Part shown: positions 7,674 through 27,095 of the stretch, one piece after another | Position numbering within the stretch: position 1 is the first letter of the stretch | Layout: every line of letters begins with the position of its first letter | Assembly: GCA_036245525.1 (NCBI GenBank) | Contig: BTPG01000005.1 | Span: 117,410,119-117,474,118 of the forward strand | Source: Semisulcospira habei | Taxonomy: Eukaryota; Mollusca; Gastropoda; Semisulcospiridae | Reading direction: 5' to 3' | DNA length: 64,000 bases | Position numbers and translations under genes: made by a program | Notes under the pieces: generated by a model | The model's database searches: none | Seen by the model: the letters and a program-made list of their open reading frames with translations, nothing else | What the model was told of the DNA's origin: nothing

Positions 7674-9307
7674 TTGTGCAATACTCAGTCACGCAAACAC
7701 CTTCAAAACCAAATCCTGGAATCCACCTCTTCCAAAACCCTCTACGCCACCATGAACACACTCCTAGGCACTTCTAAAGACTCTCCTCTCCCCAACACAC
7801 ACAGCAAAGAAGAACTCCCGTCTGCTTTCTCTACCTATTTTTCGGACAAAATCCAAAATCTGCGCGACACACTCGACACCCTGCCTCCTCCGCCTTGCCC
7901 TCCCGACCCCACCTTTTCCGGCACTCCCCTCTCGTCCTTCCGCACCGTCTCTCAGGATGAAGTCCTCAAGACCATAAAGTCCATGCCCTTCAAAACCTGC
8001 GAACTTGACCCCCTCCCAGCTTCTCTCTACCGTGACGGCCTTCCAAAACTTCTACCCTTCATTACCGACATCATCAACGCATCTCTAGAAAACGGCTCCG
8101 TCCCCGATATCTTCAAGTCCGCCATCGTCCGTCCTCTCCTCAAAAAACACAACCTCGACCCAAACGAACTCAAGAACTATCGCCCAGTCTCCAATCTCTC
8201 TTTCCTGTCCAAGCTTCTTGAGAAGGTTGTTCTCAACCAGCTCAACCTCCATCTCACCGACAACAACCTCCTCAGTCCATTCCAGTCTGCCTATCGCAAA
8301 CATCACAGCACTGAAACAGCCCTTCTACATATCTTAAACGAGCTGCTTCTCTCCACTGACTCTGGCAACATCTCCCTTCTTACACTACTCGATCTCTCTG
8401 CCGCCTTTGACACTATAGACCACTCTATCCTCCTCCACCGACTCCACCACTCCTTCGGCATCACTGACTCTGCTCACTCCTGGTTTCTCTCCTACCTCTC
8501 TGACAGACAGCAGTCCGTCACCATCAACGGCGTCTCTTCCAACCCGGTAACGCTCTCATGCGGAGTTCCACAGGGGTCCGTCCTGGGCCCGGTCCTTTTC
8601 ACACTCTACACCTCTCCTCTGTCCAACATCATCCAGTCTCACCGCATACACCACCACCTCTACGCTGACGACTCACAACTGCAAGACAAAGACAAACTCG
8701 ACAACACTCAGTCACTACTGACTCGCACGGCTGACTGCTACAAAGACGTGAAAAACTGGATGACAGCAAACAAGCTGAAACTGAACGATGACAAAACGGA
8801 AGCCATGCTGGTAGGCACTCGCCAAAAACTCTCCCAGCTCCCTCCCTCTCTCCACCTTCAACTCGATAGCACCCCCATCTCCCTCTCTGACTCGGCCAAG
8901 AACCTCGGCGTCATCCTCGATTCCTCTCTGTCCATGACCAACTTCGTCTCCGCCACGACCCAGGCATGCTATTTCCACCTTCGCCGCATCAGTCAGATCA
9001 GAAAATACCTCACTACCGAAGCTGCCACCAAACTTGCTGTCTCTCTCATCTTATCTCGCATCGACTATTGCAACTCTCTCCTTTCCGGTCTCCCTCAATC
9101 CACCATCTTCACTCTCCAACGCGTCCAGAACAATGCTGCCCGCCTCGTCCTCAGAAAGAAAAAATCCGACCACATCACACCCCTGCTCAAACTCCTTCAC
9201 TGGCTCCCCATCCCCCAACGCATCCAATACAAAGTTCTGTCTCTCTGCTACAAATCCCTGAACAACTGCGCTCCTGCCTATCTCTCCAACTTACTTCACC
9301 CCTACAC
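7674..9307 (+). pseudogene. CR1/L2-type LINE reverse transcriptase, 5' part, split by the Maverick
   Basis: The open frame starts inside the protein, so the LINE is 5'-truncated near 7,665. Reverse transcriptase landmarks are clear: YRPVSNLS, motif A (LSAAFDTIDHS), motif B (GVPQGSVLGP) and the catalytic YADD near 8,661. The later RYLT...SRIDYCNSLL and LHWLPIPQRI blocks are typical of CR1/L2/Rex-like LINEs. At 9,307 the frame enters the Maverick TIR and ends after about 40 meaningless residues. The correct continuation is found in the same frame at 26,717, after one copy of the 6-bp target site is discounted. C-rich codon use sets it apart from the AT-rich Maverick genes. Confidence 0.93.
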
Positions 9308-9879
9308 AGAGAGGGGGGATATGGGAGTTTTAGAGAATCTTCTTTGGCCCTCATTTTTCTATGTTATTCGCTCACAAAAACGCACACGACCTTGCCTTTC
9401 CTTTTTCTCAAATTCCTTTTATTTTTCTCTGTAATTAGATATATAAAGAAAGAACTGAATCTTCATTAACACTATGACTGAGAATTTAAGGGGTTAACTC
9501 AGTCATAGTGTTAATAATACTTCAAATCCCCCCCTCCCCCCCCCCCCCCCCCCCCCCCCCCATAGACAAAACGCCCGATCAAACCAGTGCTTGTAACCCA
9601 AAGCAATTATATATAATACATAAACACCTCATGCCTACGCTTGACTGGTTTTGAAAGACCCCCACTTCAATTCAGGTAAGATATGAATAGACCTGTTCTG
9701 AAAATAGCAATTATTCGCATTTTCTTGTCGGGACGAGATTGCCTTTTGAAACCGGGATCGAAATTTTTTGAATCAGATCGGTATGCACCGCACCTGAGTC
9801 GCTATTCATACGGGAATTTATAATTTTTTCAATTATGTGTTCACCCGTTCGATTTGCCATTAAATGCAAATGGCTAACA
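9308..9879 (+). repeat. Maverick left terminal inverted repeat (572 bp)
   Basis: This matches the reverse complement of 26,160-26,710 until ...ggctaaca, then diverges. I compared both arms by eye and saw no mismatch. The whole 21-bp length difference is explained by a C tract (34 positions including one T here, 13 in the right arm). A palindrome, attaacactatgactgag, loop, and inverse copy, lies at 9,465-9,515. Confidence 0.95.
9465..9515. repeat. 18-bp perfect hairpin inside left TIR
   Basis: Attaacactatgactgag (9,465-9,482) and its exact inverse (9,498-9,515) are separated by 15 bp. The same hairpin is in the right TIR at 26,503-26,553. Such a structure about 160 bp from a linear end could take part in end replication or transposition; that role is inference. 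Confidence 0.9.
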
Positions 9880-10210
9880 GCCAACGCCAGGGCGCCGCTA
9901 TTCAACTTAGTAAGGGAACACTCTATGAATAAACCGGCTTTGAAAAGGCTATTTGCTGAGAGGTGACAAGAAGAGTTTCGAAATTGACTTCATATTTACT
10001 CAATGGCTGGTTCCCGAAAAATCAGACGGTGGTTATACTGTTTTGATAAGAAACTAACAAGTAATATTTAACACACACACACAGACGCACAGACAAAACA
10101 CACACACAAACAAACAAACAAACAAACAAACAAACAAACAAACACACAATCAAACAGACGTACACACACACAAACAAACAGACGTACACACACACAAACA
10201 CACACACACA

Positions 10211-10246
<36 letters not shown>

Positions 10247-10902: not shown

Positions 10903-11589
10903 TTATTTGTTTAAAAGATTGTGTAGCTTTTCTGTGGTTTCCTGAACACCTATCTTTTTTCCTTCCGCTAAAAAACTAGCCTTCAGTTCTTCAACATTTA
11001 CGGGAGATTGACTGCGCATTTTATTCTGGATTTCAGACTTCTGTTTTTTGTAATTATTTAAATCATCCTGGACTCGTTTAAATTCCTCGTCATCAATAAA
11101 ATTATCGTTCAATGCCTTACTGATAATAAGTTTAAGACTGCTCAGCTTTGCACCCGCCAAAGTACTCAATGCTTCATGTTTTTCTAATTTCGTGTGAAAC
11201 CTCTTGTTCAAGGCCTCCAAACCAAAGCATGCTAGGCATGTAGCGACGCTTAGACCCTCAATTGCTATTCCAGCCAAACTCCCAATTCCTGTGGCGAACA
11301 AAACAATGCCCCCTACAGAACATGAAGCTGAAACTGCACCAATAGCCATAGAAGTGTTTTGAACAGAATTAAATACTGACTTATACCTCCTTTTGCACCG
11401 TGAGTACTTAGCCTCCTCACTCTCCAAATATTTCAAAGCTTCTGTAATATTATTTAATCTGAATGCATCTGCCTGTAATGTTTTATCTGAAGCAATTGGC
11501 ATATGTGGATCAGGTGCAAGTGTTGTTTTAGTCATCACATTTGTTTCAGTCGGATCAAGCGTTGGTAGTTGCGGATAGAAGTTTACCAT
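10903..11589 (-). CDS. Maverick protein, 228 aa, hydrophobic core with helical tail (unknown)
   Basis: The start ATG is preceded by AATAAAAAAAA, the A-rich box shared by most genes of this element. Residues 1-70 are polar. Residues about 80-124 form a Gly/Ala/Ile-rich hydrophobic region long enough for two membrane passes. The C-terminal 90 residues are charged and probably coiled-coil. I do not recognise the family. Its place as the outermost gene of a three-gene minus-strand block next to candidate virion genes suggests a membrane-linked structural or accessory role, which is inference only. Confidence 0.85.
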   Translation of the reverse strand: MVNFYPQLPTLDPTETNVMTKTTLAPDPHMPIASDKTLQADAFRLNNITEALKYLESEEAKYSRCKRRYKSVFNSVQNTSMAIGAVSASCSVGGIVLFATGIGSLAGIAIEGLSVATCLACFGLEALNKRFHTKLEKHEALSTLAGAKLSSLKLIISKALNDNFIDDEEFKRVQDDLNNYKKQKSEIQNKMRSQSPVNVEELKASFLAEGKKIGVQETTEKLHNLLNK

Positions 11590-11619
11590 TTTTTTTTATT
11601 GACAAATATTTTTTTTTAT

Positions 11620-12495
11620 TTAATCAGCAATTACATTTTGCAACTCTTCAAAAGTATACAATTTGCTGGCATAATAAAATGCAACAAGATCAATGTGTTC
11701 AAGGTTTATGTAAGTTAGACGAACAAAAGTTGTTTTGTCGACCACCACCTTGACAGCTGGAACACTGCTCGAAACATTAATAACATCATTATTTTTTGTA
11801 ATAGCAATAAAGACCTTTGATGATTCTGTTACTGTTTCGTCCCATGTAAGTTTAATTCCTTGTGCAATTTGAGCCTCTTTAGCAGTAGCAACAGATTTCA
11901 TGATAATTTCAAATACTATTGTCACTTCTCTAGCCATGACTAAGCTTGCTGGCATAAACACAACAGAAGTATCTGATCTACCCTTTCTAGCTGTAAGAAG
12001 ATACCGCCGTCTCTCATAATTTTCAACTTTCAGTTTTTCTCTGCTATTGTTGTCTGGGGCAAAACTTGGAACAAGGCTTACAATAAGCGGCCCCGAGTTA
12101 ACAACCTTCCTAAACACTAAGGCGCCTTCATCATCAGTGTATACATAAGGACTAATAAATTCCAACTTTATGTCCCAGTCAATTGTGGGTGGTGGAACAG
12201 GCACAGGTGAAACCACCCACTTATTTCCCACATGTATTAAGTTGTAGGGCGAATTATTTACAGGTGGAGTAGGTACAGTAACATCACGTAGCTGACCAAG
12301 TTTAGGAATCTGTTTTTCACCGTCTTTCATGTCAACAATTACTTTCCTCTTGTACATGCCAAAGGAATCAAGTTCAAAACCATATATTTCTCCAATTTCT
12401 CCTTCCTTCTCAAAATCCTGTACGTCTGCCAAATCTTTCAACTCTGTTACTGGACACGCAACTGGTATGATTCTCAACTTTGGACCACCACTCAT
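11620..12495 (-). CDS. Maverick protein, 291 aa, beta-rich (unknown, possible minor structural protein)
   Basis: The gene is intact, and its start is preceded by TATAAAAAATG. It lies 30 bp upstream of the 228-aa gene and 21 bp downstream of the 236-aa gene, an operon-like spacing. The sequence has a Pro-rich central linker (VPVPPPTIDW) followed by alternating hydrophobic strands. No transmembrane segment or enzyme motif is seen. Size and composition would suit a jelly-roll minor capsid (penton-like) protein, but I see no diagnostic motif; a structure prediction would decide. Confidence 0.85.
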   Translation of the reverse strand: MSGGPKLRIIPVACPVTELKDLADVQDFEKEGEIGEIYGFELDSFGMYKRKVIVDMKDGEKQIPKLGQLRDVTVPTPPVNNSPYNLIHVGNKWVVSPVPVPPPTIDWDIKLEFISPYVYTDDEGALVFRKVVNSGPLIVSLVPSFAPDNNSREKLKVENYERRRYLLTARKGRSDTSVVFMPASLVMAREVTIVFEIIMKSVATAKEAQIAQGIKLTWDETVTESSKVFIAITKNNDVINVSSSVPAVKVVVDKTTFVRLTYINLEHIDLVAFYYASKLYTFEELQNVIAD

Positions 12496-12516
12496 TTTTT
12501 ATAAACAAAAATAAAA

Positions 12517-13227
12517 TTATTTAATTTCCAACACAACACTAAAATCATGCATAAGAACTGGTTTGTCATCCTGATTAGTTACAGATATACTCAGTGACTC
12601 AAAGAAACTAGAACCTAATTTCTTAAACTGCAAATTAGGAAATCTAACAACTACACTTTCACAATACGGAGCAGTTCCAGTTGGTAAACATCTCAACAAA
12701 GTTGAAGGCTTTCCATTGTGAACATTCTCAGATGTGTTTAGTTCTTTCAAATAAACATTTAGCACTGTGTGTACTGACAAATTGACAGGACGTTTTCCAG
12801 TTATTTTTAGTCTTTTTGTCTTCATTGTTATAATACCAGACATAGCTTCATCTAAATCATCTGTTCTCCACCAATCTTCATCAATATAAAATCCAAGTAA
12901 ATATGCAAATCTATCTGAGATCCTTAACCAATTTTGTGTCAAAAATTCTAATGTAACAAGTAGGTTAGCTGGATTTAAAGTTGCTTTAATTTTAAATTTA
13001 CTTTGAAACCATTCAGCTATAGTACAAAAGTCATAATACCCAGGTGGTATAGCTTCAGTCTTACCATCAAAAATTACTTTATTATATATATTATCTTCTA
13101 CATTAAACCATTTTACTGTGTAGAACAATTCATGGATAGCTGCAGCCTTGCTACCATCCCGATTATCAATCCCATTAGTTAACCACACTGGTTTGCTTGT
13201 GTCAAGATTTGTTAAGGTAATAAACAT
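12517..13227 (-). CDS. Maverick protein, 236 aa, candidate minor capsid-like protein
   Basis: The start is set at the ATG at 13,225-13,227, directly preceded by AATAAAA. A longer frame using TTG at 13,353 would overlap the divergent gene and is rejected. The protein is beta-rich. It has an IPPGYYDF segment, a SDRFAYLLGF block and a C-terminus ending LSISVTNQDDKPVLMH...VVLEI. The pattern of an internal LGF and a terminal L-IS-TN-G-like strand pair recalls small capsid-associated proteins of other animal Mavericks; this is a weak, unaided resemblance. Only 24 bp separate its start from the plus-strand 411-aa gene. Confidence 0.85.
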   Translation of the reverse strand: MFITLTNLDTSKPVWLTNGIDNRDGSKAAAIHELFYTVKWFNVEDNIYNKVIFDGKTEAIPPGYYDFCTIAEWFQSKFKIKATLNPANLLVTLEFLTQNWLRISDRFAYLLGFYIDEDWWRTDDLDEAMSGIITMKTKRLKITGKRPVNLSVHTVLNVYLKELNTSENVHNGKPSTLLRCLPTGTAPYCESVVVRFPNLQFKKLGSSFFESLSISVTNQDDKPVLMHDFSVVLEIK

Positions 13228-13251: not shown

Positions 13252-14487
13252 ATGGAATTTAAATCGCCAACCATCACCACTACAAACGCATTTCAATTCA
13301 ATGTGAATGCCAAATATAATGTTGCACCTACTTATGAACAGAAAATAATTCAACTAAATCAGCTTGACATAGCTGTATCAGAACAAGATTTATTTCAAGT
13401 GAAAGTACCGAATCCATTTGACCATTACCTAAACCCTCCAATAACAGACGACTCTACTGTAAGAAAGTGGTCTTCAAGTCCACTACAGATGTTTCAAAAC
13501 CAACTCAACTTTGCAATACTATGTTCAACTACAGGCTGTGGTGTTTCATTCACAGATCATTTGAATCACTCAAACAAACTGATTAGATCTGTGTATCGTT
13601 TCCACACTTACTACCAGCTTAGACGTATACTGTCAGAACTGCATACACAACTGCCCACTGAATCTAGTTTCAACAGGTTTAACAACCCCATGGATATGAA
13701 AGCATTTGAACGCATCTGTAATGAATTTAACATTAACCCTGGCACTAAGTATGACTTCACACAAAAACTTGATGATCACAAAGGCATGGGTACACTTTAT
13801 TACGCTATGAGTCACAGACAATACCCTCAAGATTATTACCCTGGTTACACTTCATTCTCATCAAAATCACAAGTCTGGTTAGGATCAATAGAGCAGAAAC
13901 AGTCTAATGCGTGGACCACATTTATTTTAGATAAATCTGACGGGTTTACTCAAGCGGGAGTCGAGCGCGTCAATGAGTCTATCAGAACATATGTCTGGTG
14001 CATACTAGGTGCCCAATCACTAACAAAATCGAATATTCTTAATGGAAGTGGTATATTTGAATCTCAAAAACAGTTTCTCGCTAATCTTGAAGATTCAATT
14101 AACTCAACAGTCGATCTCCCATCTAGCATACAACGCTACCAAAACGTACTCAAATATGCCAGATCGAAAGTTGACTTTGTAGTTGGCACTGGGTTATACA
14201 TGTTACCATCTGACCTTCAACTCCAAATGGGTACAATAACAAATTATAATAATGAAATCATTGTTGCAGGTGTTGGTCAGAAATTAGGACTCAATAAAAG
14301 TGTAAACTTAGGAGCAACAACTGCGCATGTACTGACATTAAAATCATTACAGGAGGTTACTTCCCCTGCCCCACCACTGGTAACCATACAGTCAGTAACA
14401 ACCCCTGACACACATGAGTCAGAACGAACTGCATTAGTAATAGGATTAACAGGGCTAGGAGTATTACTTCTTTATCTGTTTCATTAA
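13252..14487 (+). CDS. Maverick protein, 411 aa, C-terminal membrane anchor (unknown)
   Basis: The ATG follows TATAAAAAAGG. The protein is intact and mostly polar, with conserved-looking blocks (YVWCILGAQ near the middle, SQKQFLANLEDSI). The last 20 residues (about 391-409) form a single hydrophobic helix, a tail anchor. It converges with the 408-aa minus-strand gene, and their 3' ends overlap by 24 bp. No enzyme motif is recognised. A membrane-attached virion or exit protein is possible, but function is unknown. Confidence 0.87.
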   Translation: MEFKSPTITTTNAFQFNVNAKYNVAPTYEQKIIQLNQLDIAVSEQDLFQVKVPNPFDHYLNPPITDDSTVRKWSSSPLQMFQNQLNFAILCSTTGCGVSFTDHLNHSNKLIRSVYRFHTYYQLRRILSELHTQLPTESSFNRFNNPMDMKAFERICNEFNINPGTKYDFTQKLDDHKGMGTLYYAMSHRQYPQDYYPGYTSFSSKSQVWLGSIEQKQSNAWTTFILDKSDGFTQAGVERVNESIRTYVWCILGAQSLTKSNILNGSGIFESQKQFLANLEDSINSTVDLPSSIQRYQNVLKYARSKVDFVVGTGLYMLPSDLQLQMGTITNYNNEIIVAGVGQKLGLNKSVNLGATTAHVLTLKSLQEVTSPAPPLVTIQSVTTPDTHESERTALVIGLTGLGVLLLYLFH

Positions 14488-15690
14488 ATAACCCGCCATT
14501 AACCCTCCTACTGTCACCAAAAATACCCACACATGCTCTGCCATAAACCCAACTGCCTTTGCCGCTGTACTAATCAACCAGCTGACAACAGAGCCTAAAA
14601 TGCCAGGCAACGCGTCTACTGCTTTCAGAGCCAATTTCTTAAGCAAGTCTGATATGTGAGACAACTGTTTCTTTACCCACGACTGTAAATCTTTTGGATC
14701 TGTGGGAGCCGGTGGGCCCGGGGGTGGCGGTGCACCCCCACCAACCCCAGCACCGGAGACAGCCAGCACTACAGTGCTGATAATAAACCCAAGAGCAGTA
14801 ATTAAACTAGCAATTGTAATACCCTGTTCTCTGAAAAGTGTTTTAAGTCTCTCAGCCAGAGTAGTGTCTTCGTGAAGTATTTTCTGAATAGTTTCTCTAA
14901 TTCTGTTAACTTGGGTTTTCAGTTTTCCTCTTGCAATACTAATTGTTTCTAACCGTCCTGATCTTTCTATCTGCAAATCATTTAATCTGTGTTGGATTCT
15001 TTCTTTCATTTCTGTGTCAAGATTCCCATTGTCTGCTGTAGCCAGTTTCTCCTTTTCACGTTCAATGTGTTTATCAAGTTCTCCCAGTTTGGCAAGATTA
15101 TTAACCATCTCACCTCTTATTGTCTGCAGTGATTTATCCAATCCCATAATCTCCCTCATTGACAAAGGTGGATCATCTATTGTTTTCATAGCGTCATTTA
15201 ATTGACCTTCAGTAAATGAGGTTTCTTGTATCACAGTGTTTGCTATTTCTGGTAGGCTTGTTACTGGTGCCATTTCAATTTGTTGCCCTGTTGGCAACTT
15301 TGTTTGCGTGTCGTGAAGAGCACTAACCAGTCTTGGGGGAACGGGAGACCCTCCAATTCCAAGGTACCTTGCCAACCCAGAGTTACCACCGACTTCACCT
15401 TTAATTGTACTTAAAGCTCTAAACTTAGAAGGATTATTTTTATGTGTTAGATTTATTTTCCCTCTGTCCGTATTTACAAATAAGTGCCCTTTATCATATT
15501 CAAACTGGTTAGGATCCAAGACATCTGGGCGCGCTCCAACACTTTCATAAAATGAGTTTACTTTATCTTTTAGCAGTTCGTGATACATACTAGAACTAGT
15601 TACCATTCCAGTCATATCTGTGATACTGGTATCTGAGACATGCATGTCATCCATTTCAAAATCTTCATGATTAAATCCTCCTGCTGCCAT
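14464..15690 (-). CDS. Maverick protein, 408 aa, coiled-coil plus multiple hydrophobic helices (unknown)
   Basis: The start is preceded by AATAAAACA. The N-terminal half is polar. Residues about 190-275 are charged heptad-like helix. Residues 291-312 form a hydrophobic helix, followed by a Gly/Pro linker (GGGAPPPPGPPAP). Two further hydrophobic or amphipathic helices occupy about 361-402, and the protein ends in a basic tail (MKQIKK). This architecture is what one expects of an internal membrane-active virion protein, but I name no homolog with certainty. It starts 40 bp from the divergent capsid candidate. Confidence 0.87.
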   Translation of the reverse strand: MAAGGFNHEDFEMDDMHVSDTSITDMTGMVTSSSMYHELLKDKVNSFYESVGARPDVLDPNQFEYDKGHLFVNTDRGKINLTHKNNPSKFRALSTIKGEVGGNSGLARYLGIGGSPVPPRLVSALHDTQTKLPTGQQIEMAPVTSLPEIANTVIQETSFTEGQLNDAMKTIDDPPLSMREIMGLDKSLQTIRGEMVNNLAKLGELDKHIEREKEKLATADNGNLDTEMKERIQHRLNDLQIERSGRLETISIARGKLKTQVNRIRETIQKILHEDTTLAERLKTLFREQGITIASLITALGFIISTVVLAVSGAGVGGGAPPPPGPPAPTDPKDLQSWVKKQLSHISDLLKKLALKAVDALPGILGSVVSWLISTAAKAVGFMAEHVWVFLVTVGGLMAGYLMKQIKK

Positions 15691-15730
15691 TGTTTTATTA
15701 ATTTATTATTTTTTATTGTGCATAATAAAA

Positions 15731-18029: not shown

Positions 18030-18071
18030 CGTTAATATTTTTTCATTTATTATTTTGTCGGTCAAATAAAA

Positions 18072-21000
18072 ATGACGGACAATGCTCAAAACCCTGGCCC
18101 ATCTAGTTTAAGAAACGTGTTTCACACAACAAACTTACCTATATCCAATACTAACAATGTCTACGAATCAATAGAAAACTCTTTTTCTGTCATACAACAA
18201 AATCTTCTTACAGGCAGTGTGAAGATTCAGATTGTTGCGAAAATCGAATTCACTAGGGTGGACGGCGAGGTGATTGTATCGTACATATCAACAAGACAAC
18301 ACACTGTTAACACAAGAAGAGAACCGGAGGTGGAGAACGTGTTTAGAGACAGACTATTACCAGACTTTCTCCAGGCGATTGACAGTGCAAAAATGAAGGG
18401 GTCTGGCTGGCACGAAGGACATGTACATGAACTACAATTAAAGCAGTCTAGGTATCATCCTATATTAGGTAAATCATGGTTGCCACTGCCAACAGAAGTT
18501 TCGAACAAGAAGGCAGTCGTCAACATACAGAACAATGACAACTATTGTTTCATGTGGTGCGTACTTGCTAAACTACACTTTGTGAGGTCAAGACCTGATC
18601 GCGTATCTAACTACACCAAATTTGTAAATGAACTCAACTTTAGTGGCATTGAGTTCCCTGTTAAAATAGAAGACATAGATTTGTTTGAAAAATTAAATCC
18701 TGGTATATCTGTGAATGTGTTTGTGTGGGATAATAATGCTGAGAATAAGTTACAGCCAATTAGAGTGTCCCCAATTGCCCCAACCTATGGTCAGTCAGAA
18801 GATAAACATGTTGACATGTTGCTAATCGGAGATGACAATAACTTCCACTACACAATTATCAGGAATATGTCACGTCTAATTCATTCACATACAACAAAAC
18901 ACAATGGCAAACAGGAAGTTTGTAAGAGATGTTTACAAAGATTCTCCTCCATAAACGTAGCGCACAAACATGTTTTACACTGCAGGTCAGCTGATGACAT
19001 ACAAACAGTACTTAAGTATCCAGATCCTGGTAGTCAAGTGTATTTTAAGAACTATGGGAATCAGCAAAAGCTGCCGTTCGTAGTATACGCAGATTTTGAA
19101 TCCCTCGTTCCATATGAGGGTCCAGTTCCAGAGTCATTACCAAAGACTATAAAACTAAGTGACCAAGTGGTGTGTTCTTTTGGATACATTATTGTTAGGT
19201 CAGACGGTCTTCATTCAGAGCCTGTTATCTACAGGGGTGAAAATGCAGCATGTCTGTTTTTAACAGAAATGAGACATCTGTATAGTCAGGTAGTACAATA
19301 TCTCACAACATGCCAGATGCCTTTGGTGATGACAGAAGAAGACAAACTAAAATTTGATACAGCTGAGAAGTGTTGGATTTGTGAACGGCCTTTAGGATGT
19401 GATAAAGTTCGTGACCACGATCACATAACTGGATGTTACAGAGGTGCTGCTCATGGTGATTGTAACTTGAAATTAAAAATAGATCCTAAGACATACAAGT
19501 TACCAATCTTTTTTCACAATCTCAAAGGATATGATTCACACATCATCATGCAGGCTGTAGATGAGTCTTACAAAAACATAAGTTGTATTGCCCAGACAAC
19601 TGAGAAGTACTTGACTTTTAGGTTAGATAAATTAGCATTTTATGACTCCATGCAACATTTGTCTTTAGGGTTGGCTAGTCTGGCAGAAGGGCTGACTGAG
19701 TATCCAATAACAAGTAAATATTTTGAACCAGACTTGATTAAGAAAGGTGTGTATCCGTATGAGTACATCAGTGAGTGGGTTGTGTTTGAAGAAACAAGAC
19801 TGCCACCAAAAGAGAAATTTTATTCTACACTAACTGGAAAAGGTATTTCTGACTCTGAATATCAACATGCACTTGATGCGTGGGGGAAGTTGGGGTGTCA
19901 GACAATTGGTGACTACCACGATCAGTACTTGAAAGCTGACGTTTGCTTGCTAGCAGACGTATTTGAAAGTTACCGTGAGAAGGGTTTGTTGCACTACAGA
20001 CTTGACCCAGCCTGCTACATAACTAGTCCTGGCATGACGTGGGATGCATTTTTAAAATCTAGTAAGATATTTATAGACCTGTTGTCCGATCGTACGATGG
20101 GTGAAATGGTGGAACGTGGATTAAGGGGAGGCATTAGTATTGCATCGAACAATTACGCCATAGCCAACAACAAATATTTGGACAGTCATGGTGACCTTGG
20201 CCTGGGGTTTGACCCGTCAAGGTCATTCATTACGTACCTTGACGCTAATAACCTTTATGGGTTCGCAATGTGTGAATTATTACCCTTGAAAAACTTTTGT
20301 CTGTATGATTTGTCACAGTATGACATAACAGGGTTAACAAACAATATTATTAATCTTGAACGAAACGACGCGAAGGGTTGGATCTTTGAAGTCGACCTGG
20401 AGTACCCGCATCATCTACACGATTACCATAATGATTATCCGTTGGCTGTTGAGAAAATGAGTATGACGGGGAAAAAAGAAGACACTAAACTTGTACCGAA
20501 TCTAAATGACAAATTCAATTACGTTTGTCACTACCGCTTGTTGCAGTTTTACATCAGACACGGGTTAGTACTAAAGAAAGTTCACAGAGGAATTCAATTT
20601 GATCAAAGTGCTTTCATGAAAGATTACATAATGAAGAACACAACCCTTCGTGCCAGAGACGGCAACACTGCATTTGACAAAGACTTCTTTAAGCTTATGA
20701 ACAATGCCTGTTTTGGCAAGACGATGGAAAATCCTCATCACAGAAAAGATGTGAGACTTGTTACAACTGAATTGGGTGCAATTAAACTTACAGGCAAGCC
20801 ACAATACACAGGGTACAAAGAGTTTCATTCATCATTGTATGCAGTGTCACTCAAAAAAAAGATTGTTAAACTGGACAAACCAGTATTTATTGGTATGGCA
20901 ATTCTTGAATTGTCAAAACTGGTGATGCTTGAATTTTATTATGATTACTTCAAACCAAAGTATCCTGAGTGTCGTCTGCTATACACTGACACTGACTCTA

Positions 21001-21548
21001 TGATCATTGACGTGTGTACTGAAGACTTTTATGAAGACATGAAAACAGAACTACACATGTATGACACGTCTGATTACCCTAAGGATCATCCACTGTACAG
21101 CACACAAAACAAGAAAGTGCCTGGTAAGTTTAAGGATGAACTAAATGGTGTGCCAATAGTTGAGTACGTTGGACTGAGATCAAAAATGTATTCTATACTG
21201 CACCAGAAAGGTAGTCAGTCAAAAGCCAAAGGTATCAAGAAAACAGCAATAAAAAATAAAGAAATACGTCATGAACATTACAAGCAAGTGTTAGATGGTG
21301 CATTAATGCCTGATTATCCAAACAAGTCACTGAGATCAAACAAACATAATCTTGAAATAATTCAAACACATAAGAAATCACTTGCAGTTGGAGACACGAA
21401 AAGAGTGTTTCACACTAAAGAAAAAGCTTATGCACCTGGACATTACAGGCTCAAGTTATCTGAAGACATTTGTGATGAACTGGTTGATGAATTAATTGAT
21501 GAGTTAGTTACTGAAATGAGTAACGGTGTCTGGGGGAATAATCTGTAA
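18072..21548 (+). CDS. POLB: protein-primed type B DNA polymerase (Maverick PolB), 1158 aa
   Basis: The ATG lies in CAAATAAAAATGAC. Exonuclease motifs: Exo I DFE (D341, E343), Exo II HNLKGYD (482-487, D487), Exo III Y619-x3-D623. Polymerase motifs: A DANNLYG (D724), B K-L-M-N-N-A-C-F-G-K (874-883), C D-T-D-S (D973, D975). All catalytic residues are present. The N-terminal 270 residues form the extra domain common in Maverick polymerases (NNDNYCFMW near 156-164), followed by a Cys/His cluster (CKRC...HVLHC) and, between Exo I and Exo II, a Cys-x2-Cys / DHDH / HGDCN cluster (434-467) like endonuclease VII-type zinc folds. It would copy the linear genome from a terminal protein. Its 3' end overlaps the integrase gene by 45 bp. 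Confidence 0.98.
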   Translation: MTDNAQNPGPSSLRNVFHTTNLPISNTNNVYESIENSFSVIQQNLLTGSVKIQIVAKIEFTRVDGEVIVSYISTRQHTVNTRREPEVENVFRDRLLPDFLQAIDSAKMKGSGWHEGHVHELQLKQSRYHPILGKSWLPLPTEVSNKKAVVNIQNNDNYCFMWCVLAKLHFVRSRPDRVSNYTKFVNELNFSGIEFPVKIEDIDLFEKLNPGISVNVFVWDNNAENKLQPIRVSPIAPTYGQSEDKHVDMLLIGDDNNFHYTIIRNMSRLIHSHTTKHNGKQEVCKRCLQRFSSINVAHKHVLHCRSADDIQTVLKYPDPGSQVYFKNYGNQQKLPFVVYADFESLVPYEGPVPESLPKTIKLSDQVVCSFGYIIVRSDGLHSEPVIYRGENAACLFLTEMRHLYSQVVQYLTTCQMPLVMTEEDKLKFDTAEKCWICERPLGCDKVRDHDHITGCYRGAAHGDCNLKLKIDPKTYKLPIFFHNLKGYDSHIIMQAVDESYKNISCIAQTTEKYLTFRLDKLAFYDSMQHLSLGLASLAEGLTEYPITSKYFEPDLIKKGVYPYEYISEWVVFEETRLPPKEKFYSTLTGKGISDSEYQHALDAWGKLGCQTIGDYHDQYLKADVCLLADVFESYREKGLLHYRLDPACYITSPGMTWDAFLKSSKIFIDLLSDRTMGEMVERGLRGGISIASNNYAIANNKYLDSHGDLGLGFDPSRSFITYLDANNLYGFAMCELLPLKNFCLYDLSQYDITGLTNNIINLERNDAKGWIFEVDLEYPHHLHDYHNDYPLAVEKMSMTGKKEDTKLVPNLNDKFNYVCHYRLLQFYIRHGLVLKKVHRGIQFDQSAFMKDYIMKNTTLRARDGNTAFDKDFFKLMNNACFGKTMENPHHRKDVRLVTTELGAIKLTGKPQYTGYKEFHSSLYAVSLKKKIVKLDKPVFIGMAILELSKLVMLEFYYDYFKPKYPECRLLYTDTDSMIIDVCTEDFYEDMKTELHMYDTSDYPKDHPLYSTQNKKVPGKFKDELNGVPIVEYVGLRSKMYSILHQKGSQSKAKGIKKTAIKNKEIRHEHYKQVLDGALMPDYPNKSLRSNKHNLEIIQTHKKSLAVGDTKRVFHTKEKAYAPGHYRLKLSEDICDELVDELIDELVTEMSNGVWGNNL

Positions 21549-22481
21549 TTCTTCTCTGACAAATGCCCTCTGGGGTGCAGGGTCATACAGGTAATATATT
21601 GTTGCGTCTGCGCCGGGAATTATTTTTTTTATATTATGAACGGATGTTGACCATATGGGGTCTGTCGACCTGCGCCTGATGTCATTCTCAGCTTCCCCTG
21701 GCTGATATAAATATCTCACCTGTTTAGTAAATAAACTTGTGTCTGGTGCTGGGGTTGGGGTTGGGGTTGACATTGTTTTTGGCTCTGTAATTGTTTTCAA
21801 TTTAATAGCATCAGCAGGTTTTGGGTGTCCTTCATTGTTCATTGCTTTTATCACATGTGGTAACCTTTGTACCCATTCAGTGTTACGGGTGTCATGCATG
21901 AGTTCCTTAGAATACTGGTAACTGAAAAGTCTTTCTGATAACTGTTTGTTAAAGTTCTCTACAATTGCCTGTGATCTGTGTACACCTGGAATTCCTCGTC
22001 TGACCAGTACGCCATGCTTCGCAAATAACTGATTAACTGCGCCCTTAAATTCAGATCCATCATCGACCTGCACTAGTCTGGGGTATCTTAAGGGGCCTCG
22101 ACTATATATTTTTGATAATGCTGTAGCAACTGTACTGGCTGTTTTGTCAGATATGGGTTCAGCGTCTTTATACCTTGAAGCAATGTCTACAACAGTCAAA
22201 GCGTACTTGTATCGTTTCTTTCTTATTGTGTCATGCGGAAGAAACAGGAGGTCCATTTGGTGCGTGTCATTAGGTGTTGTGTTCTCAAAATGAGGTCTCG
22301 TTATCTTTCTTGGAGCAGGGAGATAAATTTGCCAAATTGCCTGTCTCTGTAACCATTGCTTGACTTGATTGAGTGTTATATCTCCGCCCACAGCGGCATG
22401 TAATTTCTGAATAGCGGTTGCTCCTTTATAATACCCTGATGGTGAGTAATATATTTTCGATAGTTTATTTTCGGCTGCCAT
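21504..22481 (-). CDS. INT: rve-family integrase of the Maverick, 325 aa
   Basis: The start is the ATG at 22,479-22,481 (MAAENKLS); the longer TTG-started frame is not needed. Residues 1-60 hold an HHCC-like or helical N-terminal region. The DDE core has D77 (QMDLLF), D140 (VQVDDGSEFKG) and E175 (AIVENFNKQ), spaced like retroviral and Polinton integrases. The C-terminal region (DPIWSTSVHNIKKI, residues about 280-320) fits the small beta-barrel DNA-binding domain. It would join the TIR ends to target DNA, in line with the 6-bp duplication seen here. The gene converges with PolB (45-bp overlap), and its start overlaps the end of the 144-aa gene by 17 bp. Confidence 0.96.
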   Translation of the reverse strand: MAAENKLSKIYYSPSGYYKGATAIQKLHAAVGGDITLNQVKQWLQRQAIWQIYLPAPRKITRPHFENTTPNDTHQMDLLFLPHDTIRKKRYKYALTVVDIASRYKDAEPISDKTASTVATALSKIYSRGPLRYPRLVQVDDGSEFKGAVNQLFAKHGVLVRRGIPGVHRSQAIVENFNKQLSERLFSYQYSKELMHDTRNTEWVQRLPHVIKAMNNEGHPKPADAIKLKTITEPKTMSTPTPTPAPDTSLFTKQVRYLYQPGEAENDIRRRSTDPIWSTSVHNIKKIIPGADATIYYLYDPAPQRAFVREELQIIPPDTVTHFSN

Positions 22482-22899
22482 TTTTTCTAGCAATGAAAAC
22501 TCCAGTAAAATAAACAAATATCATTCCCACTAGAACAAAGATTATCTCCCCGTTTCTTTGTTCTGGGCTTGGTTGATAGTAGTCACTTAGTTTTGGTTTC
22601 GGTATAGACATATCTTCACCCGTGACTAAAAAATACTCACGGATTGCGTCGTCTGTATTTGAAAACGTATGTTGTGCGTGACCTTCTAGCCTGAGTTTTT
22701 CATTGATGAAATCAAGTTTCTCAATTCTATTCTTTTCGTAATCCTGTTCTGCCTGTGCTAATTTTTCTGACGCTTCATTATGACGCTTTATTTCTTCTGC
22801 AGATTGTTCTCTACCCATTTTAGAAAAGAGATAATTAGAGCCGCTAAACGCCAGAGCGTTGACCATCGCTCCTCCCACCATAATAGCTATCGTCGCCAT
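22465..22899 (-). CDS. Maverick membrane/coiled-coil protein, 144 aa (unknown)
   Basis: The start box is AATAAAAATAATATGG. A Gly/Ala-rich hydrophobic N-terminus (about residues 3-20) is followed by a charged helical stretch (AEEIKRHNEASEKLAQAEQD), a LSDYYQPSPEQ block, and a clear C-terminal transmembrane helix (about 118-137) with a basic tail. Similar two-ended membrane proteins accompany the integrase in other animal Mavericks to my recollection, but no function is known. It is the second gene of a five-gene minus-strand run. Confidence 0.87.
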   Translation of the reverse strand: MATIAIMVGGAMVNALAFSGSNYLFSKMGREQSAEEIKRHNEASEKLAQAEQDYEKNRIEKLDFINEKLRLEGHAQHTFSNTDDAIREYFLVTGEDMSIPKPKLSDYYQPSPEQRNGEIIFVLVGMIFVYFTGVFIARKNGSRK

Positions 22900-22910
22900 A
22901 TTATTTTTAT

Positions 22911-23141
22911 TTACATAGAAACATTTTCGGGAATAATACCTTGTTTAACAAGAAGGTCTTTCGTGGCGATTGACGCTGTTACAACTACAATTAGCTTAGC
23001 GCTGTCTTCGAAATCGAGTCTACTGAGGTCTGGTGATTTCATTTTGAGTAGATTTTTTCCCAGCATAGAAAACGCTACTGCTAATGCACTGATTACTGCA
23101 GAGTGATACACAAGATTCATTAAATTCTTTGAGTCATTCAT
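22911..23141 (-). CDS. Maverick small membrane protein, 76 aa (unknown)
   Basis: A short intact ORF 11 bp upstream of the 144-aa gene. Two hydrophobic segments (residues about 10-28 and 48-62) flank a KSPDLSRLDFED loop, consistent with a hairpin membrane protein. The A-rich start box is absent here, so it may be translated from a polycistronic or upstream transcript. Function is unknown. Confidence 0.8.
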   Translation of the reverse strand: MNDSKNLMNLVYHSAVISALAVAFSMLGKNLLKMKSPDLSRLDFEDSAKLIVVVTASIATKDLLVKQGIIPENVSM

Positions 23142-23176
23142 TTCTTAGGCAAGAAAAAATTAAAATAATAAATTTA

Positions 23177-23656
23177 TTACTGCATATGAAATGGGTCGAC
23201 AACTTTGGGTATTGTTGGTAATGTGGCGACTTCTGTTTTTGATGATGGAGTGTTTAATTTTTTGGACACTGTACGAGTCTGTGGCTTGTATTTTTTGTAT
23301 AATTGGTAAGCTACAAAACCAGATCCGACAACAAATGCGGCAACTGCATATCTTGCTGTTTCAGAATTAGACTGGGTTGAAGGTCTTTCACTTTGATGTG
23401 GGTGTGACAGGGGTGCCAGTCCTGACGGTCCTACCGGTCCTACCGGCGGTGTTGACGGCGGATCACTTACATGAGCCTTTTCTGTTAGCGCCTGTAGCTG
23501 TAACTTTTTCTGCTTGTTCCATTCAGCTAAACGTTTACCAGACTGAACCCTCCCTTCATTTTTAATTTTTGTCACTGAGTGAATCGGAGTCTGGACAGGG
23601 TCCGAAACAGGGTTCATCTGTGGGGTCGTTGGGGGGGTCGTCTGTTGGTCGTCCAT
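23177..23656 (-). CDS. Maverick protein, 159 aa, Pro-rich with one transmembrane helix (unknown)
   Basis: The start is the ATG at 23,654-23,656, preceded by GATAAAA; a TTG four codons earlier is rejected. The N-terminal half is Pro/Thr/Gln-rich with a basic GKRLAEWNKQKK segment. A single hydrophobic helix (YAVAAFVVGSGFVAY) lies near residue 115, and a basic tail follows. Its 5' end overlaps the 3' end of the 183-aa gene by about 95 bp in another frame. A role in a virion membrane is possible but unproven. Confidence 0.84.
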   Translation of the reverse strand: MDDQQTTPPTTPQMNPVSDPVQTPIHSVTKIKNEGRVQSGKRLAEWNKQKKLQLQALTEKAHVSDPPSTPPVGPVGPSGLAPLSHPHQSERPSTQSNSETARYAVAAFVVGSGFVAYQLYKKYKPQTRTVSKKLNTPSSKTEVATLPTIPKVVDPFHMQ

Positions 23657-24113
23657 TTTTATCAACAAAAAAATTTAATTTCGTAAAATCTACATGGCTG
23701 CTAGTTACAATTAATGTTACCAGAGGAGCCAGCAAATTACCAAATCTGTAGAATAAAAGGCAAGCTAATTTACCAATTGCACTCGTTACAATGGGGTTAC
23801 TCTCGAGGTCATTTGTGAGATTTTCAATGTCTACAGGGAGAGCGTAACTCACAGCTTTTGAATATAAGCAGACAATTGATTTGCTCAAATCACGGGTCAT
23901 TAGTGAAGCCATGTGCTGTTCATATTTAAAATGAAGTTTAAATAAATCAGCAGCCGTGAGGGATAGTATATCTTCAGTTGAATATAGCTTCCCAAGATAA
24001 GATTTTGAATGACCAGAAACCACTACAAATAAAAGCCGTTCCCTTTTCGAATCTAACTCTATGTTTTCTACAGCGCCAATATCATTTAATAATAATATTT
24101 CATCTGTGTTCAT
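23562..24113 (-). CDS. Maverick protein, 183 aa, helical (unknown)
   Basis: The start is preceded by TATAAAATG. The protein is mainly helical (KLHFKYEQHMASLMTRD, LPVDIENLTNDLESNP), with a hydrophobic stretch near residues 115-145 and a Pro/Asp-rich acidic tail. No enzyme motif is seen. In particular no His...Cys arrangement of an adenain protease is present. It heads the run of minus-strand genes that ends with the integrase. Confidence 0.84.
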   Translation of the reverse strand: MNTDEILLLNDIGAVENIELDSKRERLLFVVVSGHSKSYLGKLYSTEDILSLTAADLFKLHFKYEQHMASLMTRDLSKSIVCLYSKAVSYALPVDIENLTNDLESNPIVTSAIGKLACLLFYRFGNLLAPLVTLIVTSSHVDFTKLNFFVDKNGRPTDDPPNDPTDEPCFGPCPDSDSLSDKN

Positions 24114-24153
24114 TTTATAATAAAATATATTTTAAATAATAAGTGAAATAAAA

Positions 24154-24192
24154 ATGCACTTACCTTTGAAACGAGGAGCTGTTTCGACTTAA
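24154..24192 (+). other. 13-codon mini-ORF with a full start box
   Basis: GAAATAAAAATG precedes 12 sense codons and a TAA. The box is the same as that of the capsid candidate, the 115-aa gene and PolB. On the opposite strand the same spot offers a good splice donor (CAAAG|GTAAGTG). It could be a short late peptide, the stub of a gene cut by an insertion, or chance. Confidence 0.35.
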
Positions 24193-24243
24193 TTAGTCTC
24201 ATCAGAAAGGTCAGAAACCCTTGACAGCTCAAAGAAAATGAAA

Positions 24244-24528
24244 AATTTTTAGTGGTCACCTATTTTGTACCAAAGACCACATGTCAAGCCAAACATGTAA
24301 TTGCTCTCGGATGTAGATTTGTGTGTGTTTGTGTGCTGAGCTGTGGTACACCCCTAGAAAAAACACTCGAACATGATACTCCCGGGCTGCGTAAAAACGC
24401 ATATCACGTGAAAGTGTTTTTCCAACACACCACACTAAGATAAAAATATTCTGTGGTGTGTAAAATTTGATGGTATGTACAAAAGCCGAGAGCAAATGTA
24501 AGCCGCTTATTCTTCGTAAGCGGCTGTG
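24244..24528. other. structured Maverick intergenic region with several inverted repeats
   Basis: Inverse pairs include ttgctctcgg near 24,299 with ccgagagcaa near 24,485, acacaccaca with tgtggtgtgt around 24,425-24,462, and a tight hairpin AGCCGCTTA-7 nt-TAAGCGGCT (24,501-24,525). The 19-mer ending that hairpin recurs inverted at about 24,950-24,968 inside the next gene. No ORF of note is present. It may be a terminator, an origin-like region or the remains of a small fold-back element. Confidence 0.5.
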
Positions 24529-24543
24529 GAACTACTCCGTTAT

Positions 24544-25011
24544 TTATGCATTGCTTCCACTTGCTGCTGCTTTTTCTTGTCTCCTCTGTGCAATAATTGC
24601 ATGCAATCTTTGGAATAAGGGGTTATTAGTTTCTAATTGAGTTATTTTGGCATCGATCTTATTTGCAGCCATTTCATTCATTTCTACATCCTTTTGTTTT
24701 AATCTTATTTTTTGCTCTCCTTGAAAAATAGCTCTTTTAATTTTTTCTGCCTTTCCCTCAAGGTTGCCATATTCTTTTATCATGGCTGGCAATGACTGAA
24801 AGTTGTTTTCATCATTATCCGCAATTATTTTATCAGCAATAGGTTTCATCTCTTCTTGAAGATTATTTAAGCTTGTGTTTAAATCCTGTACATTAGCATT
24901 TAGTTTCTCCAATTCTTCTTTAAAACGAGCCACTTTTTCCTTACGAGCACACAGCCGCTTACGAAGAAGGCAGTTTTGCACAATCGCACTTTTACCAGAA
25001 TATTGTGTCAT
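24544..25011 (-). CDS. Maverick-internal coiled-coil protein, 155 aa (unknown)
   Basis: Residues about 20-120 are strongly charged heptad-like helix (EELEKLNANVQDLNTSLNN), ending in a basic/Gln-rich tail. Unlike the other genes it lacks the A-rich start box. Instead it has a classical TATAAAA at 25,041-25,047, about 30 bp before the ATG. It might therefore be an early or host-type gene, or cargo. Its family is not recognised. Confidence 0.78.
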   Translation of the reverse strand: MTQYSGKSAIVQNCLLRKRLCARKEKVARFKEELEKLNANVQDLNTSLNNLQEEMKPIADKIIADNDENNFQSLPAMIKEYGNLEGKAEKIKRAIFQGEQKIRLKQKDVEMNEMAANKIDAKITQLETNNPLFQRLHAIIAQRRQEKAAASGSNA

Positions 25012-25040
25012 GGTTGACTCTACTTAGCTCTGGGGTTTGG

Positions 25041-25047
25041 TTTTATA
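25041..25047 (-). promoter_or_regulatory. TATA box for the 155-aa gene
   Basis: TATAAAA on the minus strand sits 30 bp upstream of the ATG at 25,011. It differs from the start-adjacent A-rich boxes used elsewhere in the element. Confidence 0.55.
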
Positions 25048-25301
25048 CTAGAAAATATCTTAACACGCATTAGTTCCAAGGCACGCCAACAGTCAAGTTC
25101 AAACTGGCTTGATCGTGCCTGATTTCGAAATGTGCAAAACGTGCAGAATAAAATCAGCAAACAAAACCAGACAGTCTAACAAACAGATATAAAACGCCAC
25201 TCATGACGCTCACTGTGTGTATTCACGGAGCGGCAAATCAATTACTGTGTCAACATCAAGTTCAAAGCCTTTTGAAATGACCAGCAAAATCAACCTACAC
25301 C

Positions 25302-25913
25302 ATAGCTGCCAACCCTGAGGCAACAAAATCCCTGAGCTGCGGCCTCCACGACGCTAGCCCTTGCTTCCAGGTGCCAAAAAATCAAACAACAGGGGGGGGG
25401 GGTACGCACCTTGCTCCAGCCAAATAATCTAACACAGTGCTCGTCAGCCCGCCTACGTTTACTGTGTAGCGATGTTTATGTCTGCCTGGCACATTTTACA
25501 AATGGCAAAGTGTTCGCCCTTCGTCGATGTAAGAAACGCTTGTAGTCTGGATGGAACTTCACCAACCACTTCTGCTTGTTTGGAGGCATCATTTTATACC
25601 AGTTGTGAAAATCGCTAAGCATGTGCTCCAGACCAGGGCAATTTCGAAGCAACCGGAACAAACACAGAATGCATGCAAATTTGCTGCTCATGCGTAATCA
25701 AGACTGGCTGTGGGTCCCCGAAAGCTTAGCGGTACAGTATAGTGGCAGGCTCTCAACTACAGGCACTTGACCGAGCGGTACGCCAAAATGCCTCGAATTT
25801 TAAAACAAAGCTTGAAAATCCGAAAATCGGGAAAATTGTACAAAAAAACGGAAAATCGGGACTTGAAAAAAATTCGGGAAATTCCCGAAAAATTCGGGAG
25901 GGTTGGCAGCTAT
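25302..25913. mobile_element. small TIR element nested in the Maverick
   Basis: The left end atagctgccaaccct and right end agggttggcagctat are exact inverses. The flanks are cctacacc and gctacacc (7 of 8 bp shared), which fits an 8-bp hAT-like duplication. Inside are a C/G homopolymer, repeated aatcgggaa / attcccga words, and a 71-codon minus-strand ORF (25,476-25,691) with no known family. It is about 612 bp and non-autonomous. Confidence 0.75.
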
Positions 25914-26159
25914 GCTACACCCTTTGTCAGTGCCTGCGTTACTAGTCATGTTCGAACTGGCTTGATCATGTCTGTTTCATTCAGTCAACAGAAATCCCCT
26001 CCTCGGGGTGGGTTTTTGAAAAATTCCAGTCAGCCGGTCCAAAATCTTTCGTCAGTGCTTGTAATGTTGTTATAAGCACAGACATAAAACAGAGTGGGGT
26101 AAAGGTGTATGATTACTGACTTTATAACGGGCCTCTCTCTGTGAAAAAAAAGGGGTGAG
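25914..26159. other. Maverick right non-coding zone
   Basis: Between the nested element and the right TIR I see no gene. The short open frame starting upstream at 25,767 spans the nested element's border, so it is not a native gene. Confidence 0.6.
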
Positions 26160-26710
26160 TGTTAGCCATTTGCATTTAATGGCAAATCGAACGGGTGAAC
26201 ACATAATTGAAAAAATTATAAATTCCCGTATGAATAGCGACTCAGGTGCGGTGCATACCGATCTGATTCAAAAAATTTCGATCCCGGTTTCAAAAGGCAA
26301 TCTCGTCCCGACAAGAAAATGCGAATAATTGCTATTTTCAGAACAGGTCTATTCATATCTTACCTGAATTGAAGTGGGGGTCTTTCAAAACCAGTCAAGC
26401 GTAGGCATGAGGTGTTTATGTATTATATATAATTGCTTTGGGTTACAAGCACTGGTTTGATCGGGCGTTTTGTCTATGGGGGGGGGGGGGATTTGAAGTA
26501 TTATTAACACTATGACTGAGTTAACCCCTTAAATTCTCAGTCATAGTGTTAATGAAGATTCAGTTCTTTCTTTATATATCTAATTACAGAGAAAAATAAA
26601 AGGAATTTGAGAAAAAGGAAAGGCAAGGTCGTGTGCGTTTTTGTGAGCGAATAACATAGAAAAATGAGGGCCAAAGAAGATTCTCTAAAACTCCCATATC
26701 CCCCCTCTCT
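26160..26710 (-). repeat. Maverick right terminal inverted repeat (551 bp)
   Basis: This is the inverse copy of 9,308-9,879. It carries the 18-bp hairpin at 26,503-26,553 and a 13-G tract in place of the longer C tract on the left. It ends at ...CCTCTCT directly before the duplicated target site. Confidence 0.95.
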
Positions 26711-27095
26711 CTACACACCTTCCCGCTCCCTCCGCTCTGCCTCCGACCCTCTCCGCCTCCACATCCCTCGCACCAAACTTAACACTTTCGGTCCCCGCTC
26801 CTTCTCCGTCTACGGTCCATCCATCTGGAACACTCTCCCACTCTCTCTCCGTCAGAAACACTCTCTCTCCTCCTTCCAGTCCGCCCTCAAAACTCACCTC
26901 TTTCAACAGTTTTAGCACTATATCACCGCACTCCCCACCCCAAGCTGACCGTCGTAATGTATTTCACTGTTTGTGGTACGTGAGTCATTGTCTAAAGCGT
27001 GCGCATGCGTGCGCGAGTTGTGAGTGTGCGCTTAGAGTTATAATTATTATAAGATAAGCGCATTATAAATACCGTAATTATTTTTTATTATTACA
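26711..27095 (+). pseudogene. CR1/L2-type LINE, C-terminus and 3' UTR
   Basis: This begins with the duplicated target site ctacac, then continues the reverse transcriptase frame in phase to a stop at 26,913-26,915. It contains the conserved FGPRSFSVYGPSIWN and LPLSLR blocks at the end of such ORFs. The short 3' UTR ends in gcgcattataaatacc followed by an (att)n tail, the usual 3' signature of CR1/L2 elements. A similar 3' signature occurs in reverse near 48.2 kb. Confidence 0.9.

What the first reader, a model, noticed from the sequence alone, without database searches (positions are those of the whole stretch)
9302..26716. Base-exact, apparently intact Maverick/Polinton provirus of 17.4 kb
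TIRs of 572/551 bp match by eye except one C tract, CTACAC is duplicated at both borders, and 14 genes are open. Excising 9,308-26,710 plus one target copy lets the host LINE frame run on in phase, so the borders are certain. No visible decay suggests recent integration or an extant virus.
Basis: partly seen in the sequence, partly recalled or inferred. Interest (0 to 1): 0.85.

Follow-up and report, generated by a model that had tools for sequence, protein, structure and literature searches.

The report
Young Polinton family, swappable capsid-like gene
The 17.4-kb insertion is an intact, recently integrated Polinton (a virus-like mobile element), one of more than two hundred relatives in the same genome, whose presumed shell genes look preserved by selection while one of them exists with different, highly variable middle parts in different copies.

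Summary
The element spans 9,308-26,710; its 572/551-bp inverted repeats differ only by 21 gap columns at the C tract, CTACAC stands on both sides, and I count 15 open frames. It is a Maverick/Polinton: PolB, RVE integrase, A32-type ATPase, (AG)3//(CT)3 ends.

It is not alone. Two capped searches of the same 1.98-Gb genome give 239 distinct places with near-identical integrase or orf236 genes. All 39 terminus pairs compared have perfect duplications, 27 of 5 bp and 12 of 6 bp. In sampled intact copies PolB, integrase, ATPase and the major-capsid candidate have dN/dS 0.04-0.08. Copies are mosaics.

The surprise is orf236 (12,517-13,227), a candidate minor capsid protein: three forms, 74-76% identical, nearly identical ends, variable middle with dN about equal to dS, while neighbouring genes differ no more between forms than within: a recombining cassette.

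The kind is known; the copy number and the cassette are the new parts.

The parts
9302..9307 (.). left target-site duplication CTACAC
9308..9879 (+). left terminal inverted repeat, 572 bp, begins AGAGAG
9465..9515 (.). hairpin inside the TIR; the same inverted repeat is in 7 of 7 other TIR-end loci compared (L002-L008)
   Evidence: (z -6.5)
10903..11589 (-). orf228, hydrophobic stretch (by eye), no family over its cut-off
11620..12495 (-). orf291, no family; dN/dS 0.148 among 16 sequences
12517..13227 (-). orf236, candidate minor capsid protein (name by recall); three forms, variable alignment columns about 41-165; dN/dS 0.886 over the gene among 17 sequences
13252..14487 (+). orf411, C-terminal hydrophobic segment (by eye), no family; dN/dS 0.127 among 16 sequences
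14464..15690 (-). orf408, 345 relatives at E <= 0.001 among 7994 scored; two forms differing mainly in the first 120 alignment columns; dN/dS 0.372 among 18 sequences
15731..17014 (+). orf427, candidate major capsid protein (name by recall; no database match); dN/dS 0.061 among 18 sequences
17034..17645 (+). A32-type packaging ATPase, Walker A present; dN/dS 0.040 among 18 sequences
17682..18029 (+). orf115, no family
18072..21548 (+). PolB (1158 aa, YTDTDS present) with a weak endonuclease VII match; dN/dS 0.078 among 11 sequences
21504..22481 (-). RVE integrase, 325 aa from ATG, 34 residues between the second D and the E; dN/dS 0.066 among 11 sequences
22465..22899 (-). orf144, two hydrophobic ends (by eye), no family over its cut-off
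22911..23141 (-). orf76, 99% identical in one other copy; not scanned against families
23177..23656 (-). orf159, proline-rich with a hydrophobic segment (by eye)
23562..24113 (-). orf183, no family over its cut-off
24121..26159 (.). right accessory segment, about 2.0 kb, no DNA match in the 0.68 kb at the same place in the one other copy compared; holds orf155
24544..25011 (-). orf155, many weak coiled-coil-type matches, none over its cut-off
26160..26710 (-). right terminal inverted repeat, 551 bp
26711..26716 (.). right target-site duplication CTACAC
7752..9307 (+). host LINE reverse-transcriptase frame interrupted by the element
   Evidence: (PF00078)

Best explanation
A complete Polinton (Maverick) of a large, still recent family in an animal genome, probably an invertebrate's. 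Shown: open replication and integration genes, exact ends, 5- or 6-bp target duplications, more than 200 places with near-identical genes, strong purifying selection among intact copies on replication and presumed capsid genes, and recombination among copies. Inferred mechanism: a copy is expressed; PolB replicates a linear genome from protein-primed (AG)3//(CT)3 ends; the ATPase packages it in a capsid of orf427 and orf236; the integrase inserts new genomes into germ-line DNA with a 5- or 6-bp stagger. Repeated passage through particles would explain selection on capsid genes and the mixing of lineages. Swapping of the orf236 middle would then change an exposed part of the particle.
For: Pox_A32 ATPase and rve integrase hits over their cut-offs. 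PolB residues 500-1158: top 20 relatives at 51-61% identity, some later ones labelled PF03175. DTD, Walker A and integrase D/E residues. TIR and TSD. Exact 26-base tip 124 times, reversed control 0. 39 of 39 terminus pairs with perfect 5- or 6-bp duplication. Within-copy TIR comparison: 7 of 11 other copies without mismatch, window 0 of 551. dN/dS PolB 0.078, integrase 0.066; orf427 0.061, ATPase 0.040. Integrase without stops in 115 of 119 scored, orf236 in 150 of 150 scored, both lists capped and ranked by similarity. All six capsid-side genes full length and stop-free in 12 of 20 sampled copies. Mosaicism: window-L032 integrase dS 0.013, PolB 0.121; L033-L036 PolB 0.038, integrase 0.103; all four combinations of the two main orf236 and the two orf408 forms.
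Against: No adenovirus-type protease was recognised (orf76 not scanned). orf427 and orf236 match no capsid family or structure. Viral-contig scans with PolB, orf427 and orf408 gave only two distant PolB relatives, 36-37%. Copies were sampled from capped, similarity-ranked lists, which favours intact, young ones; even so 10 of 20 PolB genes were not usable (2 with one stop, 8 interrupted or partial) and 8 of 20 copies had a capsid-side gene broken or missing. In one search three copies showed large TIR differences (133, 12 and 44 mismatches: L015, L023, L027); those loci or their partners contain N stretches, and L017 shows 12-13 in both calls.
Confidence: 0.75

Rival explanations
1. Purely intracellular transposon: it replicates and integrates inside germ cells without particles, and the capsid-like genes are kept for some other action in cis.
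For: High copy number on all eight large contigs and no close relative in the viral contigs scanned.
Against: Presumed capsid and packaging genes are as constrained as PolB (0.061 and 0.040 against 0.078), and orf236 has no stop in 150 of 150 scored copies.
Confidence: 0.2
2. Exogenous virus that repeatedly endogenises: most copies are separate germ-line infections by a diverse circulating population, not descendants of endogenous copies.
For: Mean between-copy dS of 0.11 in PolB against almost no TIR divergence within most copies; three orf236 forms; the 20 closest PolB relatives sit on metagenome contigs of 2.3-15.0 kb.
Against: Several endogenous lineages copying over time plus recombination give the same pattern; no near-identical free contig was found.
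Confidence: 0.3
3. The variable middle of orf236 is relaxed or converted sequence with no selective meaning.
For: Bootstrap intervals for dN/dS in alignment columns 41-165, one representative per form, all include 1: 0.80-2.30, 0.73-1.92, 0.68-1.92. Genes with stops were left out beforehand.
Against: 150 of 150 scored genes close to the window's form have no stop; conserved islands alternate with variable stretches inside the block; a metagenome relative shows the same layout of conserved ends and different middle.
Confidence: 0.3

Closest known systems
Vertebrate Mavericks (Nino Barreat & Katzourakis 2021, PMC8097293; text parts 1-3 of 8 and search passages seen)
   Same: Size (theirs 12.7-24.6 kb), TIRs, 6-bp duplications, (AG)3//(CT)3 ends, PolB, integrase and ATPase, opposed strands for PolB and integrase, intronless genes, purifying selection, accessory regions.
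   Different: If orf427 is the major capsid protein, it lies on the PolB strand here and on the integrase strand in most of theirs (they note exceptions in the cane toad and the western clawed frog). No protease recognised here. Their largest number of intact elements in a genome is 38, and in cyprinids all eight core genes are strongly conserved; here more than 200 places, and one hypervariable gene.
Polintons with jelly-roll capsid proteins (Krupovic et al. 2014, PMC4028283; passages seen)
   Same: PolB, RVE integrase and packaging ATPase; protease identifiable in 74% of theirs, so not finding one is not unheard of.
   Different: MCP and penton could not be confirmed here by any profile or fold.
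Endogenous mavirus-like virophages, EMALEs (PMC8547959, passages; PMC10945749, passages)
   Same: Multi-copy elements, recombination, strain-level hypervariable regions; the first paper gives 5-6-bp duplications for mavirus and Polintons.
   Different: Protist host; their three hypervariable regions are a primase/helicase gene, a central accessory region and a FNIP-repeat gene, not a candidate minor capsid gene.
Metagenome PolB relatives P0001-P0020
   Same: 51-61% identity over 94-98% of residues 500-1158; weak endonuclease VII match in 18 of 18 aligned.
   Different: Unnamed contigs of 2.3-15.0 kb; their other genes were not seen.

Membership tests
Polinton/Maverick | protein-primed family B DNA polymerase | tested here: met
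   5859 relatives at E <= 0.001 among 7993 scored, some of the 120 listed labelled PF03175; DTD motif. The window's own protein does not reach PF03175 and finds no convincing solved structure.
Polinton/Maverick | RVE integrase | tested here: met
   PF00665 E 2.8e-11, over its cut-off; 34 residues between second D and E.
Polinton/Maverick | A32/FtsK-type packaging ATPase | tested here: met
   PF04665 E 2.1e-15, over its cut-off.
Polinton/Maverick | long TIRs with repeated short end motif such as (AG)3//(CT)3 | tested here: met
   motif type as in PMC8097293.
Polinton/Maverick | 5-6-bp target-site duplication | tested here: met
   39 of 39 pairs: 27 of 5 bp, 12 of 6 bp, window 6 bp.
Polinton/Maverick | double jelly-roll major capsid protein | tested here: inconclusive
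   orf427 named by recall; no Pfam, PHROG or NCBIfam match, one PDB match at E 1; structure prediction unavailable.
Polinton/Maverick | penton-like minor capsid protein | tested here: inconclusive
   orf236 named by recall; no Pfam, PHROG or NCBIfam match; best PDB match NEDD4-binding protein 2, E 0.0024, taken as chance.
Polinton/Maverick | adenovirus-type cysteine protease | tested here: inconclusive
   not recognised with Pfam in the frames scanned (orf76 not scanned); a very divergent one cannot be excluded.
Vertebrate Maverick architecture | two opposed modules, PolB-ATPase-PM-PZ and integrase-capsid-protease | tested here: inconclusive
   PolB and ATPase share a strand and integrase is opposed, as in PMC8097293; the position of orf427 would break the scheme, but its name is recall.
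Adintovirus | free Polinton-like animal virus | not testable with these tools
   needs particles or free DNA; no close relative in the viral contigs scanned.

The most novel reading that the evidence does not exclude
The genome carries a living population of animal DNA viruses whose many endogenous copies act as an archive of capsid variants: recombination among copies deals out different middle parts of a vertex-like capsid protein (and N-terminal parts of orf408), much as other viruses vary receptor-binding or antigenic parts.
Probability: 0.3. Interest if true: 0.85.

Novelty: new variant of a known kind. Interest (0 to 1): 0.6.

Why it matters
Maverick particles had not been observed when the vertebrate survey was written (PMC8097293 abstract). 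A family with more than 200 near-identical gene copies in one genome, constrained presumed capsid genes and one diversifying structural-protein candidate makes the question testable: look for protected DNA and particles in this host, and ask whether the orf236 forms differ in what they bind.

Tried and rejected
Solo-TIR mini-elements: four pairs 187-619 bp apart looked like defective palindromes, but each holds 10-20 N, so they are most likely assembly gaps; my notebook entry is wrong on this point. 'Five-bp duplications are six-bp ones with a lost end base': rejected, because the base that would have to be A (or T) varies. LINE frame as proof of borders: weak. Free viral relatives: PolB, PolB alignment, orf427 and orf408 alignment gave 0, 2, 0 and 0 loci; one of the two also matches the ATPase (24%) and integrase (29%). 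Of the 120 listed orf408 relatives 35 were aligned; P0129 and P0225 were read but not aligned. Rfam and tRNA scans of the window found nothing.
Full report
What is there. The element runs from 9,308 to 26,710. Its TIRs (572 and 551 bp) are identical apart from 21 gap columns at a C tract, and CTACAC flanks it on both sides. It interrupts a LINE reverse-transcriptase frame. I take 15 ATG-started frames of 76 aa or more as genes. Identified by profile: A32-type ATPase and RVE integrase. Identified by relatives and motif: PolB, which like all 18 aligned relatives carries a weak endonuclease VII match. The names 'major capsid' for orf427 and 'minor capsid' for orf236 come from my recall of Polinton proteins; searches of Pfam, PHROGs, NCBIfam and PDB neither support nor refute them. 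No protease was recognised.

It is one of many. The window lies in a 1.98-Gb genome whose eight large contigs add to 1,963 Mb. The exact 26-base tip occurs 63 times forward and 61 times reverse, with 0 for the reversed control. The integrase search scored 119 places (capped; 13,753 candidates), 115 without stops, identity 95-100%. The orf236 search scored 150 places (capped; 10,134 candidates), 150 without stops, identity 96-100%. Both lists are ranked by similarity to the window, so intact copies come first. Merging places within 12 kb leaves 239 distinct clusters, a lower bound. A 401-bp PolB piece scored 40 places (capped; 4,312 candidates), the best other copy at 98%. Candidate numbers are not copy numbers.

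The insertions are young. Of the 124 tips, 100 were listed; they and one place give 39 inverted pairs, and 23 listed tips stayed unpaired and were not examined. All 39 pairs have perfect duplications, 27 of 5 bp and 12 of 6 bp; without the four short pairs that contain N it is 23 and 12 of 35. Spans: 34 of 39 over 10 kb, median 16.3 kb, range 16.0-22.1 kb, and one of 7.6 kb. The two ends of a copy were compared in 11 other copies: 7 have no mismatch, the rest 1, 2, 12 and 12, over best stretches of 294-903 columns that in some copies reach beyond the TIR and hold 1-39 gap columns. An earlier alignment gave 133, 12 and 44 mismatches for three of them, whose loci or partner loci contain N stretches. 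Choosing copies by an exact tip favours young ones, and an assembly may make repeats too alike.

Selection. From 20 of the 119 integrase places I fetched PolB plus integrase: 10 PolB genes are full length without stops, 2 full length with one stop, 8 interrupted or partial; the 10 plus the window were used. Mean dN/dS: PolB 0.078 (mean dS 0.112), integrase 0.066. From 20 other of the 119 I fetched the capsid side. Genes full length without stops: orf291 15, orf236 16, orf411 15, orf408 17, orf427 17, ATPase 17, of 20 each; all six in 12 of 20. With the window added, dN/dS is 0.148, 0.886, 0.127, 0.372, 0.061 and 0.040. These are pairwise Nei-Gojobori means on related copies, so they describe and do not test; keeping only intact genes favours constraint.

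Mosaic copies and the cassette. PolB and integrase distances disagree (correlation 0.41; window-L032 and L033-L036 as examples). At an 8% clustering distance orf236 falls into three forms among 17 sequences (11, 5 and 1); mean amino-acid identity, gaps left out, is 74-76% between forms and 96-99% within the two forms that have more than one member. Comparing one sequence per form, the C-terminal 87 codons have 1-2 synonymous and 0-1 nonsynonymous differences and the first 40 columns 1-2 and 2-3, while columns 41-165 have dS 0.33-0.45 and dN 0.40-0.49; the intervals of the ratio include 1, so positive selection is not proven. orf291, orf411, orf408, orf427 and ATPase are about as different within as between orf236 forms, so the block moves on its own. 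orf408 has two forms differing mainly in its first 120 columns, and all four combinations of the two main orf236 forms with the two orf408 forms occur. Relatives of orf236 are few: 3 proteins at E <= 0.001 among 179 candidates, and the closest shares the conserved ends with a different middle. The right accessory segment also differs: 2.0 kb here, 0.68 kb of unmatched DNA in the one other copy compared.

Known or new. Vertebrate Mavericks with intact genes, TIRs, 6-bp duplications and purifying selection are in print, with at most 38 intact copies in a genome. Mavericks are reported across the mollusc genomes of one survey (PMC10294476, passages). Mixed 5-6-bp duplications are stated for mavirus and Polintons, a protease that cannot be identified is common enough, and hypervariable regions are known in reactivated virophages, in other genes. 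A search for Maverick with penton and hypervariable returned three papers, of which I saw passages of one; a five-term search for Polinton, recombination, capsid, positive selection and intact returned none. In those searches I found no description of a variable cassette in a Polinton capsid-like gene; the library lacks most subscription papers.

Host. Not named. A nuclear copy of COX1 (PF00115) reads open for 259 codons with the invertebrate mitochondrial code and for 132 with the vertebrate code. That rests on one AGA codon; the mollusc- or annelid-like look of the protein and the thought of a chiton are recall.

On rereading the calls I softened 'hundreds' of copies to 'more than 200', moved the vertebrate gene-order test from not met to inconclusive because it depends on a recalled name, and added the TIR comparison, the other open frames and the count of wholly intact capsid sides.

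Noticed in passing
window 9465-9515 and L002-L008: A strong hairpin inside the TIR (z -6.5 as single-stranded DNA); the same inverted repeat is in 7 of 7 other TIR-end loci compared.
   Followed up: partly
L002 (C6:185890400-185890560) against window 9210-9307: A more diverged Polinton copy (TIR 84.5%) sits in another copy of the same LINE, about 9 bp from the window's insertion point: coincidence or target preference.
   Followed up: partly
window 18072-21548, residues 425-467 of PolB: 19 of 19 PolB proteins aligned have a weak endonuclease VII match inside the polymerase.
   Followed up: partly
G000:C7:74389346 and 74390607: Two orf236 genes 1.26 kb apart on the same strand, possibly a tandem duplication or an assembly fault.
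   Followed up: no
window 34994-36066 and 58102-58548: Further reverse-transcriptase pieces (PF00078, DUF6451) and a Mutator-like transposase piece.
   Followed up: no
P0129 (metagenome protein): A 231-aa piece of an orf408 relative, 81% identity over 57% of the query, on a 1.2-kb contig: the highest identity seen outside this genome.
   Followed up: no
L008, L013-L016, L023, L024, L028: N stretches of 151-951 bases in loci at element ends: gaps or withheld stretches.
   Followed up: no
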